Made by a program: the position numbers and the translations under genes
The notes under the pieces: model-generated
Seen by the model: only the letters and a program-made list of their open reading frames with translations
Told to the model about the DNA's origin: nothing
Database searches by the model: none
Shown: positions 6,169-14,783 of the stretch, piece after piece
Layout of the letters: each line of letters opens with the position of its first letter
Numbering within the stretch: position 1 is the first letter of the stretch
NCBI GenBank assembly: GCA_001298545.1
Contig: LJCX01000019.1
Span: 328,582-392,581, forward strand
Reading direction: 5' to 3'
DNA length: 64,000 nucleotides
Source: Actinobacteria bacterium OV320
GTDB taxonomy: Bacteria > Actinomycetota > Actinomycetes > Streptomycetales > Streptomycetaceae

Positions 6169-8279
6169 CCGCCGTGGGCGCTTCCGCCGAGCGCAGGGAG
6201 GGCCGGGAGAAGGTCACCGGAACTGCCCGCTACGCCGCCGAACAGCCCCTTCCCGGGCGGCTGTTCGCCCGTCCGGTCCCGGCGGCGATCGTGCGCGGCC
6301 GGGTGACCGACATCGACGACACGGCGGCGCTGGCGCTGCCCGGTGTCGTCACCGTGCTCACCCACCGCAACGCGCCCCGCCTCGCCTCCGCGGACGACGC
6401 CACCCTCGCCGTGCTCCAGGACCCCGAGGTTCCGAACCGGGGCTGGTTCGTCGCCCTGGTGGTGGCCGACAGCCCCGAGGCGGCCCGGGCCGGCGCCGCC
6501 GCCGTGCGGGTCACCTGTGTCGAGGACAAGCACGACGTCACGCTCACCGCGACGCACCCGCAGGCGTACGTCCCCGAGAAGATCAACGGGATGTTTCCGG
6601 GCGTACGGGAACTGGGCGACCCCGACGGCGCGTTCGCCGACGCGGACGTGCGGGTCGACGTCGGCTACCAGGTGCCGCCCCTGCACAACCACCCCATGGA
6701 GCCGCACGCCAGCACCGCGCACTGGGACGGCGAACGGCTCACCGTGCACACCTCCAGCCAGGGCACCACGGCCGTACGCGCCGTGCTCGGCACGATGTTC
6801 GGGCTGGCGGACGAGCGGATCACGGTCGTGGCCGAGCATGTCGGGGGCGGCTTCGGGTCCAAGGGCACGCCCCGGCCGGACGTGGTGCTCGCCGCGATGG
6901 CCGCGTGGCACACCGGACGCCCGGTCACCGTGGTCCTCCCCCGGCGCGTGCTGCCCACCTCCGTCGGCCACCGGGCGTCCACCCTGCACCGGCTGCGCCT
7001 GGGCGCGGACTCCGACGGCCGGCTCACGTCACTTGTCCACGAGGTGACCACGTACACGTCGCGGATCAAGGAGTTCGTCGAGTACGCGGGCATGCCGGCC
7101 CGCATCATGTACGCCGCCCCGAACCTGCGCAGCCGGCATCACGTGGTCCGGCTCGACGTGCCGACGCCGTCCTGGATGCGGGCCCCCGGTGAGGCGCCGG
7201 GCATGTACGCCCTGGAGTCGGCGCTGGACGAGCTCGCCGAGGCCCTCGGGATGGATCCGGTCGAGGTGCGGGTCCGCAACGAGCCGGACGCCGAACCGGA
7301 CAGCGGCAAGCCGTTCAGCAGCCGACACCTCGTCGAGTGCCTGCGGGAGGGCGCCCGCCGGTTCGGGTGGTCCGACCGGGACCCCCGTCCCCGCACGCGT
7401 TCCGCCGGCCCGCTGCTGCTCGGGACGGGCGTGGCCGCCGCCACGTACCCGGTGCAGGTGTATCCGTCGAGGGCGGCGGCGCGTGCCCTGCCGGACGGGT
7501 CCTTCCTCGTCGAGGTGAACGCCGCGGACATCGGCACCGGCGCCCGTACGGTCCTTGCGCAGGCCGCGGCGGACGCCCTGCAGGCACCCCTGGAGCGGGT
7601 GCGGATCCACGTGGGCAACAGTGATCTGCCGCCGGCCCCGCTGGCGGGCGGTTCCTCGGGTACCGCCTCCTGGGGCTGGGCGGTGCACGATGCCTGCACA
7701 CGGCTCGCCGCGCAGCTGGCGGAACATCAGGGTCCGCTGCCCGACGAGGGGTTGGAGGCGCGCGCCGACACCAAGGGGGCGGCCGACGCCGAAAGTCCCT
7801 TCGCGCGGCACGCGTTCGGGGCGCACTTCGCGGAGGTCTCCGTGGACACGGTGACCGGAGAGGTGCGGGTGCGCCGGCTGCTCGGGGTGTACGCGGCGGG
7901 ACGCATCCTCAACCCCCGTACCGCGCGCTCCCAGTTCGTCGGCGGGATGACCATGGGCCTGGGCATGGCGCTGACCGAGGGCAGCACCCTGGACCCCGCC
8001 TTCGGCGACTTCACGGAGTCGGATCTCGCGGCCTATCACGTGCCCGCGCACGCCGACGTCCCGGACATCGAGGCGCACTGGATCCACGAGGACGATCCGC
8101 ATCTCAACCCGCTGGGCGGCAAGGGGATCGGAGAGATCGGCATCGTGGGCACGGCGGCCGCCCTCGGCAACGCCGTGCACCACGCCACGGGCGTCCGCTT
8201 CCGCGAACTGCCCCTGACCCCCGACCGGGTGCTGACGGGCCTGCTGGAGACCCCTCGGCACCCGGTACCGGCCGGTTAG
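6165..8279 (+). CDS. paoC: PaoC-like molybdopterin catalytic subunit
   Basis: The product is 704 aa, starting at the ATG that overlaps the paoB stop. It is the molybdenum-cofactor (molybdopterin cytosine dinucleotide type) subunit that hydroxylates aldehydes or N-heterocycles. It has the N-terminal a/b hammerhead (about 1-110) and the two Moco-binding domains, with glycine-rich G-G-G-F-G-S-K near residue 230 and the C-terminal G-K-G-I-G-E-I-G segment carrying the catalytic glutamate. No PaoD/XdhC-type cofactor-insertion gene lies beside it, so that function must come from elsewhere. Its TAG stop overlaps the TAA of the convergent gene by three bases. Confidence 0.9.
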   Translation: MTAVGASAERREGREKVTGTARYAAEQPLPGRLFARPVPAAIVRGRVTDIDDTAALALPGVVTVLTHRNAPRLASADDATLAVLQDPEVPNRGWFVALVVADSPEAARAGAAAVRVTCVEDKHDVTLTATHPQAYVPEKINGMFPGVRELGDPDGAFADADVRVDVGYQVPPLHNHPMEPHASTAHWDGERLTVHTSSQGTTAVRAVLGTMFGLADERITVVAEHVGGGFGSKGTPRPDVVLAAMAAWHTGRPVTVVLPRRVLPTSVGHRASTLHRLRLGADSDGRLTSLVHEVTTYTSRIKEFVEYAGMPARIMYAAPNLRSRHHVVRLDVPTPSWMRAPGEAPGMYALESALDELAEALGMDPVEVRVRNEPDAEPDSGKPFSSRHLVECLREGARRFGWSDRDPRPRTRSAGPLLLGTGVAAATYPVQVYPSRAAARALPDGSFLVEVNAADIGTGARTVLAQAAADALQAPLERVRIHVGNSDLPPAPLAGGSSGTASWGWAVHDACTRLAAQLAEHQGPLPDEGLEARADTKGAADAESPFARHAFGAHFAEVSVDTVTGEVRVRRLLGVYAAGRILNPRTARSQFVGGMTMGLGMALTEGSTLDPAFGDFTESDLAAYHVPAHADVPDIEAHWIHEDDPHLNPLGGKGIGEIGIVGTAAALGNAVHHATGVRFRELPLTPDRVLTGLLETPRHPVPAG

Positions 8280-9897: not shown

Positions 9898-10120
9898 CCG
9901 TCCGGGAAGAGGTTTTCACCCCCGCTCGACCCGATCTCCCCTGCTCCGCGCCCTGTTCGGTGCCCGACCGCGCGATGATCACGGAGAGTAAGGAAACCAA
10001 CCACCCGTTCGATTCGTATAAGTGACTGAAGGACGCACCTATCCAGCACCACGCAGCGGGCCCGAGTGACGTCGCACAGCGGCACCGCTTGATCGAAGCA
10101 GTACCGACGAGGGAGAGACG

Positions 10121-10312
10121 ATGCAACCGTTCACGCTCAACTACGCACGCCCAGCGGCCGAGTTGGAGTTCAGCACTCCGTACGCCTATGACCCCGGAAT
10201 GCAGTTGAACGTAACTCTCGACGGCCGGATCGCCGCCCGCGACCACGCCCTCCTGAGAGAACTCGGGACAACGACCTCGACGGCGGGCTCCAAGACCCAC
10301 TTCGACGACTGA
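10121..10312 (+). CDS. Graspetide-type RiPP precursor peptide
   Basis: A 63-aa peptide starting at ATG 10121 behind GGGAGAGACG. It matches the actinobacterial 'ATP-grasp target RiPP' precursors: an N-terminal P-F-x-L-x-Y-A element, a central Y-D-P-x-x-Q-L leader element (residues 23-29), and a C-terminal core of hydroxyl and acidic residues, GTTTSTAGSKTHFDD (49-63). Thr50-52, Ser53, Thr54, Ser57 and Thr59 are possible ester donors, Lys58 a possible amide donor, and Asp62 and Asp63 the acceptors. The dedicated ATP-grasp gene begins 16 bases downstream. The leader-core split is my inference. Confidence 0.85.
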   Translation: MQPFTLNYARPAAELEFSTPYAYDPGMQLNVTLDGRIAARDHALLRELGTTTSTAGSKTHFDD

Positions 10313-10328
10313 ACACGGACCGACGAAA

Positions 10329-11315
10329 ATGACCGTGCTCATCCTTACCTGTGAAGAGGACGTCACGGCGGACATGGTGGTCGTGCACCTGAACGCCGCG
10401 GGCGTCCCCGTCGTCCGGCTGGACCCGGCCGACCTGACCCATTCCGTCGCGCTCTCCGGCGAGTACGTGCACGGTGCCTTCCGAGGCCACCTGTCGTCCG
10501 CCGGACGGCTGGTGAGCCTCGACGGGCTGCGGTCGGTGTGGGTCCGGCGGCCCGGCGAGGCGGCGGCCCGGGCGGCCCAGCCGTCCGCGTGGCTCACGGA
10601 GGAGGCCTCACAGGCGCTGTACGGCATGCTCCGCGGTACCGGGGCACGCTGGATGAACCACCCGGACGCGTCCCGGCGCGCCCGGTACAAGCCCTGGCAG
10701 CTGCGACTCGCGCAACTCAGCGGGCTGCCCGTGCCGGCCACGATCGTCACGACGTTCCCGCAGGCGGCGCGCGAGTTCGCGGACCGCTACCCGGATCTGG
10801 TGGTCAAGCCGGTGTCCGGGGCACATCCGCAGGACCCGCCCCGGGCGGTGCCCACCACCCGGGTCCCGCCGGGCGCGGACTTCGCCGCCGTGGCCTACGG
10901 GCCGACGCTGCTCCAGCGCCGGGTGGCCAAGCGGGCCGACATACGGCTGACCGCGGTCGGCGACCGCATCCTGGCCGCCCGCAAGGAGACGGCCCCCGGC
11001 GGCGACCCCGACGTGGTGGACGTGCGCTACTCGCCCTCCACCGCACCGTGGCGTCCCGCCGACGTCCCGCCGCGCCTCGCCGAGGCCGTGCGCAGGTATC
11101 TGCGGGAGGCGGAACTGGCCTACGGAGCCTTCGACTTCGCGGAGGACGCCGACGGGACGTGGTGGTTCCTGGAGTGCAACCAGTCCGGCCAGTTCGGCTT
11201 CGTGGAGGTGGACACCGGGCAGCCGATCGCCCGCACCATCGCGCAGTGGCTGGCCGACGCGCCCCCGGAGCGCGATGCCCGGCAGCCCGACCGGTGCGAC
11301 TCCACCGCCTCGTGA
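10329..11315 (+). CDS. ATP-grasp peptide maturase (graspetide ligase)
   Basis: The product is 328 aa, starting at ATG 10329. It resembles the SAV_5884-type ATP-grasp RiPP maturases, relatives of MvdC/MvdD. The N-terminal pre-ATP-grasp domain (about 1-110) starts V-L-I-L-T. The ATP-grasp fold follows, with the nucleotide lysine region D-L-V-V-K-P-V-S-G (about 155-163), the R-R-V-A-K-R-A-D-I-R core, and the metal-binding E282-C-N284 followed by Q-S-G-Q-F-G-F. Such enzymes activate Asp/Glu side chains as acyl phosphates and join them to Ser/Thr/Lys side chains of the precursor. The methyltransferase often encoded in related clusters is not adjacent. A hairpin follows the stop. Confidence 0.88.
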   Translation: MTVLILTCEEDVTADMVVVHLNAAGVPVVRLDPADLTHSVALSGEYVHGAFRGHLSSAGRLVSLDGLRSVWVRRPGEAAARAAQPSAWLTEEASQALYGMLRGTGARWMNHPDASRRARYKPWQLRLAQLSGLPVPATIVTTFPQAAREFADRYPDLVVKPVSGAHPQDPPRAVPTTRVPPGADFAAVAYGPTLLQRRVAKRADIRLTAVGDRILAARKETAPGGDPDVVDVRYSPSTAPWRPADVPPRLAEAVRRYLREAELAYGAFDFAEDADGTWWFLECNQSGQFGFVEVDTGQPIARTIAQWLADAPPERDARQPDRCDSTAS

Positions 11316-11379: not shown

Positions 11380-11625
11380 TCAGACGGCCAGGGACAGTCC
11401 GCTCTCCGGCTCACGCGCCGGCACCGCCGCCGCGGCCTCGAGCAGGGCGTCCGCCGCGGCGACCGCCTCCCGGACGTCGGGCGTGTCCATCAGCACGCAC
11501 AAGGTGTACGTCACGTCCTGCAGTTCACGAGCCGTCTGCGGCCTGTCCCACTCCGCCTGAGCGATCCTCAGCGTCGCGTACCGGGTCAGCAACGTCCTGG
11601 CGACCTTCGGGTCCGGAACGATCAC
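11380..11625 (-). CDS. DUF5133 family protein
   Basis: The product is 81 aa if it starts at GTG 11625, which has AGGAGAG nine bases upstream; the frame is open to 11700, but the added residues are poorly conserved in character. The start V-I-V-P-D-P-K-V and the Y-A-T-L motif followed by a helix of roughly 40 residues are typical of the small Streptomyces DUF5133 proteins. Their function is unknown. It is convergent with the graspetide genes, and I see no reason to make it part of that pathway. Confidence 0.75.
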   Translation of the reverse strand: MIVPDPKVARTLLTRYATLRIAQAEWDRPQTARELQDVTYTLCVLMDTPDVREAVAAADALLEAAAAVPAREPESGLSLAV

Positions 11626-11730
11626 GAGCGCCCCTCTCTCCTGTTTGCGCTGCGTGTGCCCGGACCTGGGCGAATCATGCACGGCGGGCGGGAATGTCAC
11701 CCGCCGGGGTCATGATCCGGCCATCTGCGC

Positions 11731-13500
11731 TCACGCGACCTGCCCGCTGTGCAGCTCCGTGTAGGCGCCGCCCCGGTGCAGGAGCTCGTCGTGCGTGCCG
11801 GTCTCCAGGATCCGCCCCTCCCCCATCACCACGATCCGGTCCGCGCCGCGCACGGTGGACAGCCGGTGCGCCACCACGAAGGTGGTGCGGCCGCGCAGCA
11901 GCCGGGCGAGGGCCTGCTGGACGAGCGCCTCGGACCGGGTGTCCAGCGCGGACGTCGCCTCGTCCAGGACCAGCACCTTCGGGTCCCGGATCAGGGCGCG
12001 GGCGATGGCCAGCCGCTGCTTCTGCCCGCCCGACAGCCGGGCCCCGCGCTCCCCGACGAGGGTGTGCAGGCCCTCCGGGAGCCGTTCGACGAACTCCAGC
12101 GCGTTGGCGTCGCGCAGGGCGGCGCGGACCGTATCCTCGTCGGCCTCGTCCTCCATGCCGTAGGCGACGTTCTCGAGGATCGTGCCGTCGAAGAGGATCG
12201 ACTCCTGGGGCACCACGGACACGAACCGTCGGTAGGTGCGCAGGTCCAGGCTGTTCATGTCGGTCCCGTCGAGCAGTACCCGGCCCGAGGTCGGCCGGAT
12301 GAAGCCGATGACGAGGCTGAGCACCGTGGACTTGCCCGCGCCGGAGGCTCCCACGAGGGCGACCGTCTCCCCGGGGGTGACGGAGAGGGTGAAGTCGCGC
12401 ACCGCCGCGCCGCCGTCGTCGTAGGAGTAGCCGACGTCCTCGAAGGTCACGGAGCCGTGCAGCGCGGTGAGTTCGGACTTGCCCTCGTTGTCCTCCAGTT
12501 CGGGTGCCTGGAGGACCTCGCCGACCGAACGCACCGACTCCAGGCCCTTGGTGATGACCGGGGCCAGGCCGGTCAGGGTGGTGGTGGAGTTGGTGAGGGT
12601 GGTCAGGAAGGCGCTCAGCATCACGACGTCGCCTGCGCTGACGCCCCAGACGCCGTAGTACGAGATGAGCGCGGCGCCGGTGAGGACGAGCACCCCGATC
12701 ACGTTGAGCAGCACCCAGGCCAGTGAGCCGAAGCGGCCGTTGAGCAGGTCGAGTCGCATCCCGGAGGTGAGCAGCCGGCTCAGGGTGCCGTCCATGCGGC
12801 GCAGCGCCTTGCCCTCCAGCCCGTGGGCGCGGGTGACCGGGATCAGGCGGGTCATCTCGGTGACGCGCGAGGACAGGGTCTCCACCTCGTGCCGGAAGTC
12901 CTCGTTGTGGGTGCGCAGCCGGGCCCTGAGGCGGTCCACGAGCACGGCGGCGACCGGCACGACGACGAGGAAGACGGGCACGAACTCGGGGGTGCGCACG
13001 GCGATGATGACGAGGCCGCCGGTGAGCACGGTCAGCGCGCCGAGCCCCTGCTCGGCGGTCTGCTGCACCATCTGCTCCACGGTCTCCACGTCCCGCACCA
13101 CCTTGGCCTGGAGCACGCCGGCGCTGACCCGGGAGTGGTAGCCGATGGACAACTGCTGCATACGGGTGCACAGCGCGGACCGCAGGGTGGTGCCCATGCG
13201 GCGGACGCTGCCGTAGAGCAGCCGCACGTAGAGGAGGTGCAGGGGGAAGTTGACCAGCAGGATGAACAGGATGACGCCGGTGCTCGTCCAGAGTCTGCCG
13301 ATCGGCTGGTGCTGGACGACGGTGTCGATGATGGACGCGGTGATCAGCGGCAGCAGCCAGATCGGGCTGTGCTTGACGGTGAACACGCCGGCTGCGGCGG
13401 CGAGGCTGCGCCGGTCGGCGCGCAGGAGGTAGGCGAGGGTGCGGATCGGGTGCTCGCCCCGGTAACGGTGGTCGAGCGGTCTTTCGTACGACGACGCCAT
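11731..13500 (-). CDS. ABC exporter, fused membrane and ATPase domains
   Basis: The product is 589 aa, starting at ATG 13500 behind GGGAGGA. An N-terminal six-helix type-I exporter domain (about 30-320) is fused to an ATPase domain (about 345-585) with Walker A G-A-S-G-A-G-K-S-T, signature L-S-G-G-Q-K-Q-R, Walker B V-L-V-L-D-E-A-T and H-loop A-H-R-L-S-T. All catalytic residues are present. It should work as a homodimer exporting lipids, peptides or drugs. It begins 26 bases after the aldo/keto reductase stop, so the two probably share a transcript. Export of the nearby graspetide is conceivable but the gene is on the opposite strand. Confidence 0.9.
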   Translation of the reverse strand: MASSYERPLDHRYRGEHPIRTLAYLLRADRRSLAAAAGVFTVKHSPIWLLPLITASIIDTVVQHQPIGRLWTSTGVILFILLVNFPLHLLYVRLLYGSVRRMGTTLRSALCTRMQQLSIGYHSRVSAGVLQAKVVRDVETVEQMVQQTAEQGLGALTVLTGGLVIIAVRTPEFVPVFLVVVPVAAVLVDRLRARLRTHNEDFRHEVETLSSRVTEMTRLIPVTRAHGLEGKALRRMDGTLSRLLTSGMRLDLLNGRFGSLAWVLLNVIGVLVLTGAALISYYGVWGVSAGDVVMLSAFLTTLTNSTTTLTGLAPVITKGLESVRSVGEVLQAPELEDNEGKSELTALHGSVTFEDVGYSYDDGGAAVRDFTLSVTPGETVALVGASGAGKSTVLSLVIGFIRPTSGRVLLDGTDMNSLDLRTYRRFVSVVPQESILFDGTILENVAYGMEDEADEDTVRAALRDANALEFVERLPEGLHTLVGERGARLSGGQKQRLAIARALIRDPKVLVLDEATSALDTRSEALVQQALARLLRGRTTFVVAHRLSTVRGADRIVVMGEGRILETGTHDELLHRGGAYTELHSGQVA

Positions 13501-14387: not shown

Positions 14388-14452
14388 GGGCTCGCGACCT
14401 CTTTCGGATGCGGGCGGGCAGGGCGAAGTCCGGTGCACCGGGAGGTGATCGC

Positions 14453-14783
14453 GGTGCACCGGACGTCCTCCAGCCTGGCCCCGCCGTCACCCGCGGGTCC
14501 AATGGAGATAAGCGAACGCATTCAGCAGCACGGCCGCTGAATCACGGGAGTGCGGGTCAGGAGCGGCCCGCCCGGGACTCCGTCACGCCCGGCGCCTCGT
14601 GCGCGCCCTCCCGGGGGTGAGCGGGGTGCACCGGACGCCCCCCGGCCGGGCCCCGCCGTCACCCGCGGGTCCAATGGAGATAAGCGAACGCATTCAGCAG
14701 CACGGCCGCTGAATCACGGGAGTGCGGGTCAGGAGCGGCCCGCCAGGTACTCCGTCACGCCCGGCGCCTCGTGCGCGTCCTCC
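14453..14783. repeat. Tandem duplication, 172-bp period
   Basis: Sequence at 14453-14611 recurs at 14625-14783 with an offset of exactly 172 bases and only scattered differences (for example CCCGGGACT against CCAGGTACT). The right copy contains the last 18 codons and stop of the livK-like gene; the left copy carries a second version of that gene end without the rest of the gene. It covers the whole gap between the liv operon and the aldo/keto reductase. Confidence 0.9.

What the first reader, a model, noticed from the sequence alone, without database searches (positions are those of the whole stretch)
10121..11315. Minimal two-gene graspetide locus with a Thr-rich, double-Asp core
Seen: a 63-aa precursor and an ATP-grasp ligase 16 bases apart, with intact E-x-N metal residues in the ligase and the core GTTTSTAGSKTHFDD. 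Known: enzymes of this class join Asp/Glu side chains to Ser/Thr/Lys side chains, and many relatives also carry an O-methyltransferase that makes an aspartimide. Inference: with both acids at the very C-terminus (Asp62, Asp63) and seven hydroxyl donors before them, ring topology should differ from the described hairpin-type members, and with no methyltransferase beside it the product would keep free or ester-linked Asp. I see no dedicated protease or exporter; the ABC exporter at 11731-13500 is a candidate only by distance.
Basis: partly seen in the sequence, partly recalled or inferred. Interest (0 to 1): 0.78.

Follow-up and report, generated by a model that had tools for sequence, protein, structure and literature searches.

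The report
Fixed-core two-gene graspetide locus
Two neighbouring Streptomyces genes encode a 63-residue peptide and the ATP-grasp enzyme predicted to tie its tail into small ester-linked rings; the family is already catalogued, but its tail has stayed almost unchanged across many species while the rest of the peptide drifted, which would suit a shared housekeeping or signalling role better than a weapon.

Summary
The pair belongs to a named family: precursor PF14404 Strep_pep / TIGR04186, ligase TIGR04187; PDB 9BOU is a close relative of the ligase. It is a graspetide pair by every sequence test made, not a new kind. New here: (1) a nearly fixed tail: over 164 distinct precursors the core is 96% identical on average, the leader 69%; Thr51, Ser53, Ser57, Thr59, Asp62, Asp63 never vary, Thr50, Thr52, Thr54, Lys58 do; (2) ligases of 50% identity or more lie beside this precursor in 40 of 40 listed places; where a precursor could be read beside the next matches (about 6 of 20) the core is different; (3) no graspimiditide-type methyltransferase (0 of 30 and 0 of 80 loci; control 29 of 30), and the ABC exporter is not a steady neighbour; (4) a 31-bp upstream element in 80 of 80 close relatives, once in each of 6 genomes tested. 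Chemistry untested.

The parts
9992..10022 (+). Conserved upstream element GGAAACCAACCACCCGTTCGATTCGTATAAG (promoter or operator-like; function inferred)
   Evidence: Found with at most 5 substitutions in 80 of 80 close relatives, 59-139 nt before the ATG; with up to 3 mismatches one copy in each of 6 genomes with this clade, none in 2 without; not found (up to 6 substitutions) in 35 of 133 unique loci
9977..9991 (+). Flank of the element, in some relatives an inverted repeat of the type TTACG-N3-CGTAA; imperfect here
   Evidence: listing of 15-mers; column counts
10110..10117 (+). Ribosome-binding-like AGGGAGAG before the precursor ATG
   Evidence: Sequence; GGGAGAGACNATG recurs in close relatives
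10121..10312 (+). Precursor peptide gene, 63 aa, PF14404 Strep_pep / TIGR04186
10127..10144 (+). Leader motif, residues 3-8 PFTLNY (in 145 precursors of 63 aa: P3, L6 and Y8 in 144 each, F4 in 145)
   Evidence: corresponds to the Phhx(1,2)h motif of PMC8939145 and the RPFG motif of PMC13003496; binding role inferred; Pro is Ala in three divergent precursors (L196, L198, L202)
10265..10309 (+). Core GTTTSTAGSKTHFDD, residues 49-63; predicted donors Thr51/Ser53 (alternatives Ser57/Thr59), acceptors Asp62/Asp63
   Evidence: linkage inferred
10329..11315 (+). Graspetide-type ATP-grasp ligase, 328 aa, TIGR04187; D231 and R233 within 11019-11027, D269 at 11133-11135, E282 to N284 at 11172-11180
   Evidence: 80.6% identical to the printed part of PDB 9BOU

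Best explanation
This is a two-gene graspetide locus of the catalogued Strep_pep family: a 63-residue precursor and an ATP-grasp ligase, which is predicted to bind the precursor's N-terminal PFTLNY motif, phosphorylate the side chains of Asp62 and Asp63 with ATP and join them by ester bonds to two of four invariant hydroxyl residues, most likely Thr51 (to Asp63) and Ser53 (to Asp62), which would make a nested hairpin around the loop TAGSKTHF. Shown: the genes, their families, the fixed core, the pairing of this ligase clade with this precursor family, the lack of a methyltransferase, and the conserved upstream element. Inferred: leader binding, ester formation, the number and pairing of links, leader removal by a general protease, and control through the upstream element. 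Because the core hardly varies across many species while the leader does, the product likely serves one conserved physiological or signalling role rather than a diversifying attack or defence role.
For: Family scores above cut-offs. Solved relatives are 9BOU, CdnC, AMdnB and chains 5ig8, 5ig9 titled ATP grasp ligase; 9BOU is 97.5% identical to the ligase beside an HFDD precursor in S. violaceorubidus, L135. D231, R233, D269, E282, N284, K160 and K201 are kept in at least 109 of 110 family and at least 95% of 26 sister ligases (their roles are recalled). T51, S53, A55, G56, S57, T59, H60, D62, D63 are invariant in 164 of 164 distinct precursors, F61 in 163 (148 plus 16 divergent ones). Synonymous codons vary at 12 of 15 core positions, so selection is on the peptide. 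Ligase-first control, not conditioned on the core: all 40 listed places with ligase identity of 50% or more lie beside a PF14404 match (compared by eye with the coordinates). In 5 of 28 sister loci whose precursor was recognised by its RPWG-type leader or HGTS core, the hydroxyls begin right after the leader (HGTS-GT), the place of T50-T54 here; the related fuscimiditide is a nested Thr-Asp stem-loop (PMC12291112, abstract and passages).
Against: No chemistry was measured. S57, T59, H60 and F61 are as conserved as T51 and S53, so the donors could lie there. Other sister precursors have quite different cores (L211, L212, L214, L227), so placing donors by position is weak. The last residue's alpha-carboxylate could react, as postulated for SsfA (PMC10787088, PMC13001092, passages). 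I saw no characterised example of this donor spacing with two adjacent acids in the texts read. Leader removal is unproven. PF14404 and word-based searches favour sequences that keep the core; answers this only in part, because PF14404 itself includes the core.
Confidence: 0.6

Rival explanations
1. Same ligation, other topology: Ser57 and Thr59 (or one of them with Thr51 or Ser53) are the donors, giving small or crossing rings at the very tail, nearer to what the first reader expected.
For: Ser57 and Thr59 are invariant in 164 of 164 precursors; short i,i+3 rings exist in microviridins (recalled).
Against: The recognised HGTS-type sister precursors place their first hydroxyls where T50-T54 lie; fuscimiditide and amycolimiditide are stem-loops (PMC12291112, PMC13001092, PMC13003496, passages).
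Confidence: 0.27
2. Only one ester is made, or the C-terminal alpha-carboxylate takes part; the remaining free acid and His60 then bind a metal or a partner.
For: His60 is invariant and position 61 aromatic; a side-to-end link was postulated for SsfA (PMC10787088, passages read).
Against: Both Asp are equally invariant; characterised graspetide synthetases typically make several links (PMC13097080, introduction read).
Confidence: 0.13
3. The modified 63-residue protein acts whole inside the cell and the leader is never removed.
For: A crude clustering of neighbours shows no gene besides the ligase in more than 8 of 30 loci, so no linked protease or exporter is steady; the middle segment QLNV-DGR-A--D is also highly conserved.
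Against: A similar middle segment occurs in sister precursors, so it can be explained as leader; native proteases are not yet known for graspimiditides either (PMC12291112, passage). Proteases were not searched for as families.
Confidence: 0.2
4. The ABC exporter at 11731-13500 is the dedicated exporter of the product.
For: Its end lies about 0.4 kb beyond the ligase stop.
Against: Opposite strand, with a DUF5133 gene (11380-11700) between; found in only 5 of 30 and 31 of 80 relatives, fewer than DUF5133 (57 of 80) and DUF1232 (41 of 80); no equivalog over its cut-off among the 25 of 191 families shown.
Confidence: 0.04

Closest known systems
Strep_pep family (PF14404) / TIGR04186 with TIGR04187 ligase; NCBI name 'putative ATP-grasp-modified RiPP'
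   Same: Precursor matches the whole 63-position model; ligase above the curated cut-off; same gene order and similar gap in relatives
   Different: Nothing that sets it apart; it is a member
PDB 9BOU, MvdD-like pre-ATP grasp domain-containing protein
   Same: Same ligase family, 80.6% identical; 97.5% identical to the ligase of an HFDD locus
   Different: Species not shown by my calls; no paper naming it in the held library
Graspimiditides (group 13; fuscimiditide, amycolimiditide, albusimiditide)
   Same: TIGR04187-type ligase, PF/PW-type leader motif, Thr/Ser then Asp core
   Different: Window ligase 32-36% identical to 26 sampled sister ligases, longer acid-rich cores, methyltransferase beside the ligase (29 of 30 sister loci; 0 of 30 and 0 of 80 here)
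Microviridin-type and CdnC ligases (MvdC, MvdD, CdnC, AMdnB)
   Same: ATP-grasp relatives with solved structures at E 9.9e-17 to 3.8e-24
   Different: Far below the MvdC and MvdD equivalog cut-offs (120.6 of 425 and 100.3 of 475 bits); different core

Membership tests
Graspetides | Graspetide-type ATP-grasp ligase | tested here: met
   TIGR04187 380.6 bits, cut-off 350; graspetide ligases among solved relatives
Graspetides | Adjacent precursor with leader motif and donor/acceptor core | tested here: met
   TIGR04186 and PF14404 over cut-off; PFxLNY motif
Graspetides | Side-chain ester or amide links made by the ligase | not testable with these tools
   Needs co-expression and mass spectrometry
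Strep_pep (PF14404) | Match over the gathering score along the whole model | tested here: met
   123.9 bits over 25, positions 1-63 of 63
Graspimiditides (group 13) | Adjacent PIMT-type O-methyltransferase | tested here: not met
   0 of 30 and 0 of 80 HFDD loci, control 29 of 30; best TIGR04188 hit in this genome is 258 bits, below the cut-off of 380, on another contig
Graspimiditides (group 13) | Ligase groups with graspimiditide ligases | tested here: not met
   110 family ligases separate from 26 sister ligases with support 0.891; the 26 are from the best TIGR04187 hits, not a cross-section of the group
Numbered graspetide groups 1-43 | Group number of this core | tested here: inconclusive
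   The texts read (PMC13097080 sections 5 and 7 and passages; PMC8939145 section 5 and passages) do not print the core; figures and supplements not available

The most novel reading that the evidence does not exclude
A non-diversifying RiPP: a frozen C-terminal bicycle made by a two-gene locus under its own conserved, once-per-genome promoter element, serving as a conserved physiological factor or signal of Streptomycetaceae rather than an antibiotic or protease inhibitor under arms-race selection.
Probability: 0.35. Interest if true: 0.7.

Novelty: new member of a known kind. Interest (0 to 1): 0.42.

Why it matters
More than a third of sampled Streptomycetaceae genomes carry the precursor family (146 of 394 over cut-off), with an almost fixed tail, no steady helper genes and, in close relatives, a nearly invariant upstream element. 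If the product is a conserved signal or metal ligand, it would be an overlooked part of Streptomyces biology. Four candidate donors and two acceptors make the ring chemistry testable with six single-residue variants.

Tried and rejected
Rejected: ABC exporter as part; Lys58 as required nucleophile (Gln, Ala or Arg elsewhere; Gln); Thr50, Thr52, Thr54 as required donors (each replaced by a residue without hydroxyl in at least one precursor); a graspimiditide-type methyltransferase nearby; a conserved motif in the ligase C-terminal tail (length similar, sequence not); sigma-70 promoter, terminator or Rfam RNA in the stretches scanned (none). Spread beyond the family: in a class sample hits fell in 1 of 137 genera.

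Led nowhere: papers for 9BOU (0; 0); the core string (three hits in unrelated papers, seen as listings); family accessions (two papers, of which PMC8939145 was read in part and PMC4947590 only seen as a listing); old gene names (220 papers, 30 listed, none of those relevant by title); two key group papers are not held. Searches for sister precursors found few (none convincing; five of 28 loci with a ligase or precursor read; about 6 of 20, possibly 7 with L217; the rest unresolved; none ends HFDD). In one search the ligase motif was read in 13 of 20 loci, 12 of them FLECNPNGQWAW. Structure prediction was not run, because 9BOU is 80.6% identical.

Rows dropped: L176 (misread frame) from the tree; L117 and L076 gave no ligase to the script although tblastn finds it in all 30 and all 80 loci; 4 of 30 sister ligases not extracted. 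One search's gene picking is crude: it found the ligase itself in only 27 of 30. Named and unnamed loci overlap; removes duplicates but its search pattern required part of the core, so I cite for conservation.

Full report
OBSERVATION. The precursor runs 10121-10312 (+, 63 aa) and the ligase 10329-11315 (+, 328 aa), 16 nt apart. The core GTTTSTAGSKTHFDD (residues 49-63, 10265-10309), Asp62 and Asp63 as the last residues, seven Ser/Thr and one Lys, and E282-C-N284 are all as described.

FAMILY. The precursor matches PF14404 Strep_pep along its whole length (123.9 bits, cut-off 25) and TIGR04186 (46.2 bits, cut-off 25). The ligase matches TIGR04187 above its cut-off (380.6 against 350) and the MvdC and MvdD models far below theirs. 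Among solved structures it finds 9BOU (E 1.3e-172), then 5ig8, CdnC, AMdnB, 5ig9 and, weakly, 7drm. The printed part of 9BOU is 80.6% identical to the window ligase and 97.5% identical to that of L135 (S. violaceorubidus), which sits beside an HFDD precursor. So the structure of what is very likely a ligase of this group has been solved; I found no paper naming it in the held library. In one search (229 proteins found, best 120 listed) NCBI names many such precursors 'putative ATP-grasp-modified RiPP'. PMC8939145 (passages and section 5 read) lists Strep_pep among families known from an earlier study.

DISTRIBUTION. PF14404 is over cut-off in 146 of 394 Streptomycetaceae genomes (149 at E 0.001; 6 of 17 genera) and in 26 of 100 genomes of a mixed set of relatives, the window's own included. 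In a class-wide sample it is in 22 of 394 genomes, 1 of 137 genera. The window genome has one precursor match and one TIGR04187 match. Four genomes (G007, G022, G026, G049) carry one copy of each ligase sub-clade.

THE FIXED CORE. In 148 distinct precursors (120 and 30, identical ones merged) T51, S53, A55, G56, S57, T59, H60, F61, D62, D63 are invariant; T50 is Ser or Ala in 3, T52 Val or Ala in 2, T54 Lys in 1, K58 Gln, Ala or Arg in 9. Sixteen divergent precursors from five genera keep the same residues except one F61W. Over these 164 the core has a mean pairwise identity of 96% (lowest 67%), the leader 69% (lowest 36%). Among 77 distinct precursor DNAs, 12 of 15 core positions use more than one codon for the same residue. 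Twenty of those were fetched; the precursors that could be recognised (about 6) have other cores, and 12 of 13 ligase motifs read are FLECNPNGQWAW where the family has FLECNQ-GQF.

TREE. 110 family ligases separate from 26 sister ligases (support 0.891); the window ligase is 73-100% identical to its own sub-clade (94 sequences), 56-68% to the divergent set (16) and 32-36% to the sister set (L176 dropped). The sister set comes from the best TIGR04187 hits (210 of 295 genomes of the genus have one over cut-off) and is mostly of the methyltransferase-linked kind.

NEIGHBOURHOOD. The ligase is downstream in 30 of 30 and 80 of 80 loci. In a crude clustering of 30 loci no other neighbour is in more than 8. 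Among the 80 close relatives I tested five further window genes: exporter 31, DUF5133 57, DUF1232 41, aldo-keto reductase 15, molybdenum hydroxylase 28; this pattern is shared chromosome. Graspimiditide-type methyltransferase: 0 of 30 and 0 of 80, control 29 of 30. In the 26 genomes that carry the family, 12 have a TIGR04188 match over cut-off, and the places listed lie on other contigs or hundreds of kilobases away. Proteases were not searched for as families.

UPSTREAM ELEMENT. GGAAACCAACCACCCGTTCGATTCGTATAAG (9992-10022) is present with at most 5 substitutions in 80 of 80 close relatives, 59-139 nt before the ATG; 24 of its 31 positions are 99-100% conserved. With up to 3 mismatches it occurs once in each of 6 genomes with this clade and not in 2 without the family. 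At up to 6 substitutions it is not found in 35 of 133 unique loci; these carry mostly divergent precursors, but L015, of the window's own ligase sub-clade, is among them. In those 35 another motif, CACGTA-N4-TACGTG with up to 3 substitutions, appears in 16, against a mean of 2.3 and at most 5 in 50 shuffles, and in 8 of 98 of the others. The changing distance to the ATG suggests a promoter or operator; the regulator is unknown, and the simple sigma-70 scan finds nothing.

HOW IT LIKELY WORKS. The ligase would bind PFTLNY near the N terminus: the Phhx(1,2)h motif of PMC8939145 and the RPFG motif proposed as the ThfB recognition sequence (PMC13003496, passages) are its counterparts, though three divergent precursors read AF instead of PF. 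It would phosphorylate the Asp side chains and let Ser/Thr attack (mechanism of the class, PMC13097080 introduction). The core has two acids, so at most two side-chain links, or three if the C-terminal carboxylate joins, as postulated for SsfA. Required donors should be among T51, S53, S57, T59. Five recognised sister precursors carry their first hydroxyls (HGTS-GT) at the place of T50-T54, and fuscimiditide is a nested stem-loop with a 10-residue loop (PMC12291112, abstract), so I favour T51-D63 outside S53-D62 with an 8-residue loop.

VERDICT. A regular member of a known, named family, correctly spotted. The unusual points are the frozen core, the bare two-gene layout and the near-invariant upstream element. 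I found no report of this core's chemistry in the held library, which lacks most subscription papers and all figures.

Noticed in passing
window 9977-10022: Upstream element kept in 80 of 80 close relatives and found once in each of 6 genomes tested; regulator unknown.
   Followed up: partly
loci without that element, e.g. L011, L017, L021, L099, within 260 nt upstream of the precursor: A different inverted repeat, CACGTA-N4-TACGTG, in 16 of 35 loci with up to 3 substitutions, against a mean of 2.3 in mononucleotide shuffles.
   Followed up: partly
core positions 54 and 58 in L011, L102, L103, L195: In the 4 distinct precursors with Lys54, position 58 is Ala or Gln, never Lys: the lysine seems to move or be lost, not doubled.
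   Followed up: no
window 14438-14783: A 172-bp stretch is duplicated in tandem, 94% identical.
   Followed up: no
weak PF14404 matches, e.g. G006:C1, G034:C22; L208, L209, L210: Positions 30-57 of the model match inside open frames of about 680-710 aa in several genomes at E near 1e-4 to 1e-3; not explained, possibly chance.
   Followed up: no
G257:C1:1292610-1293562 and G439:C1:8245542-8246291: Second copies of the ligase beside HFDD precursors look split or truncated.
   Followed up: no
window 6189-8279: Molybdenum hydroxylase large subunit, PaoC-like (637.6 bits, below the equivalog cut-off of 1180).
   Followed up: no
G049, G009, G013, G044, G040, G058: On these long contigs the locus lies within about 1.1 Mb of an end, while in G027, G007 and G055 it lies mid-contig.
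   Followed up: no
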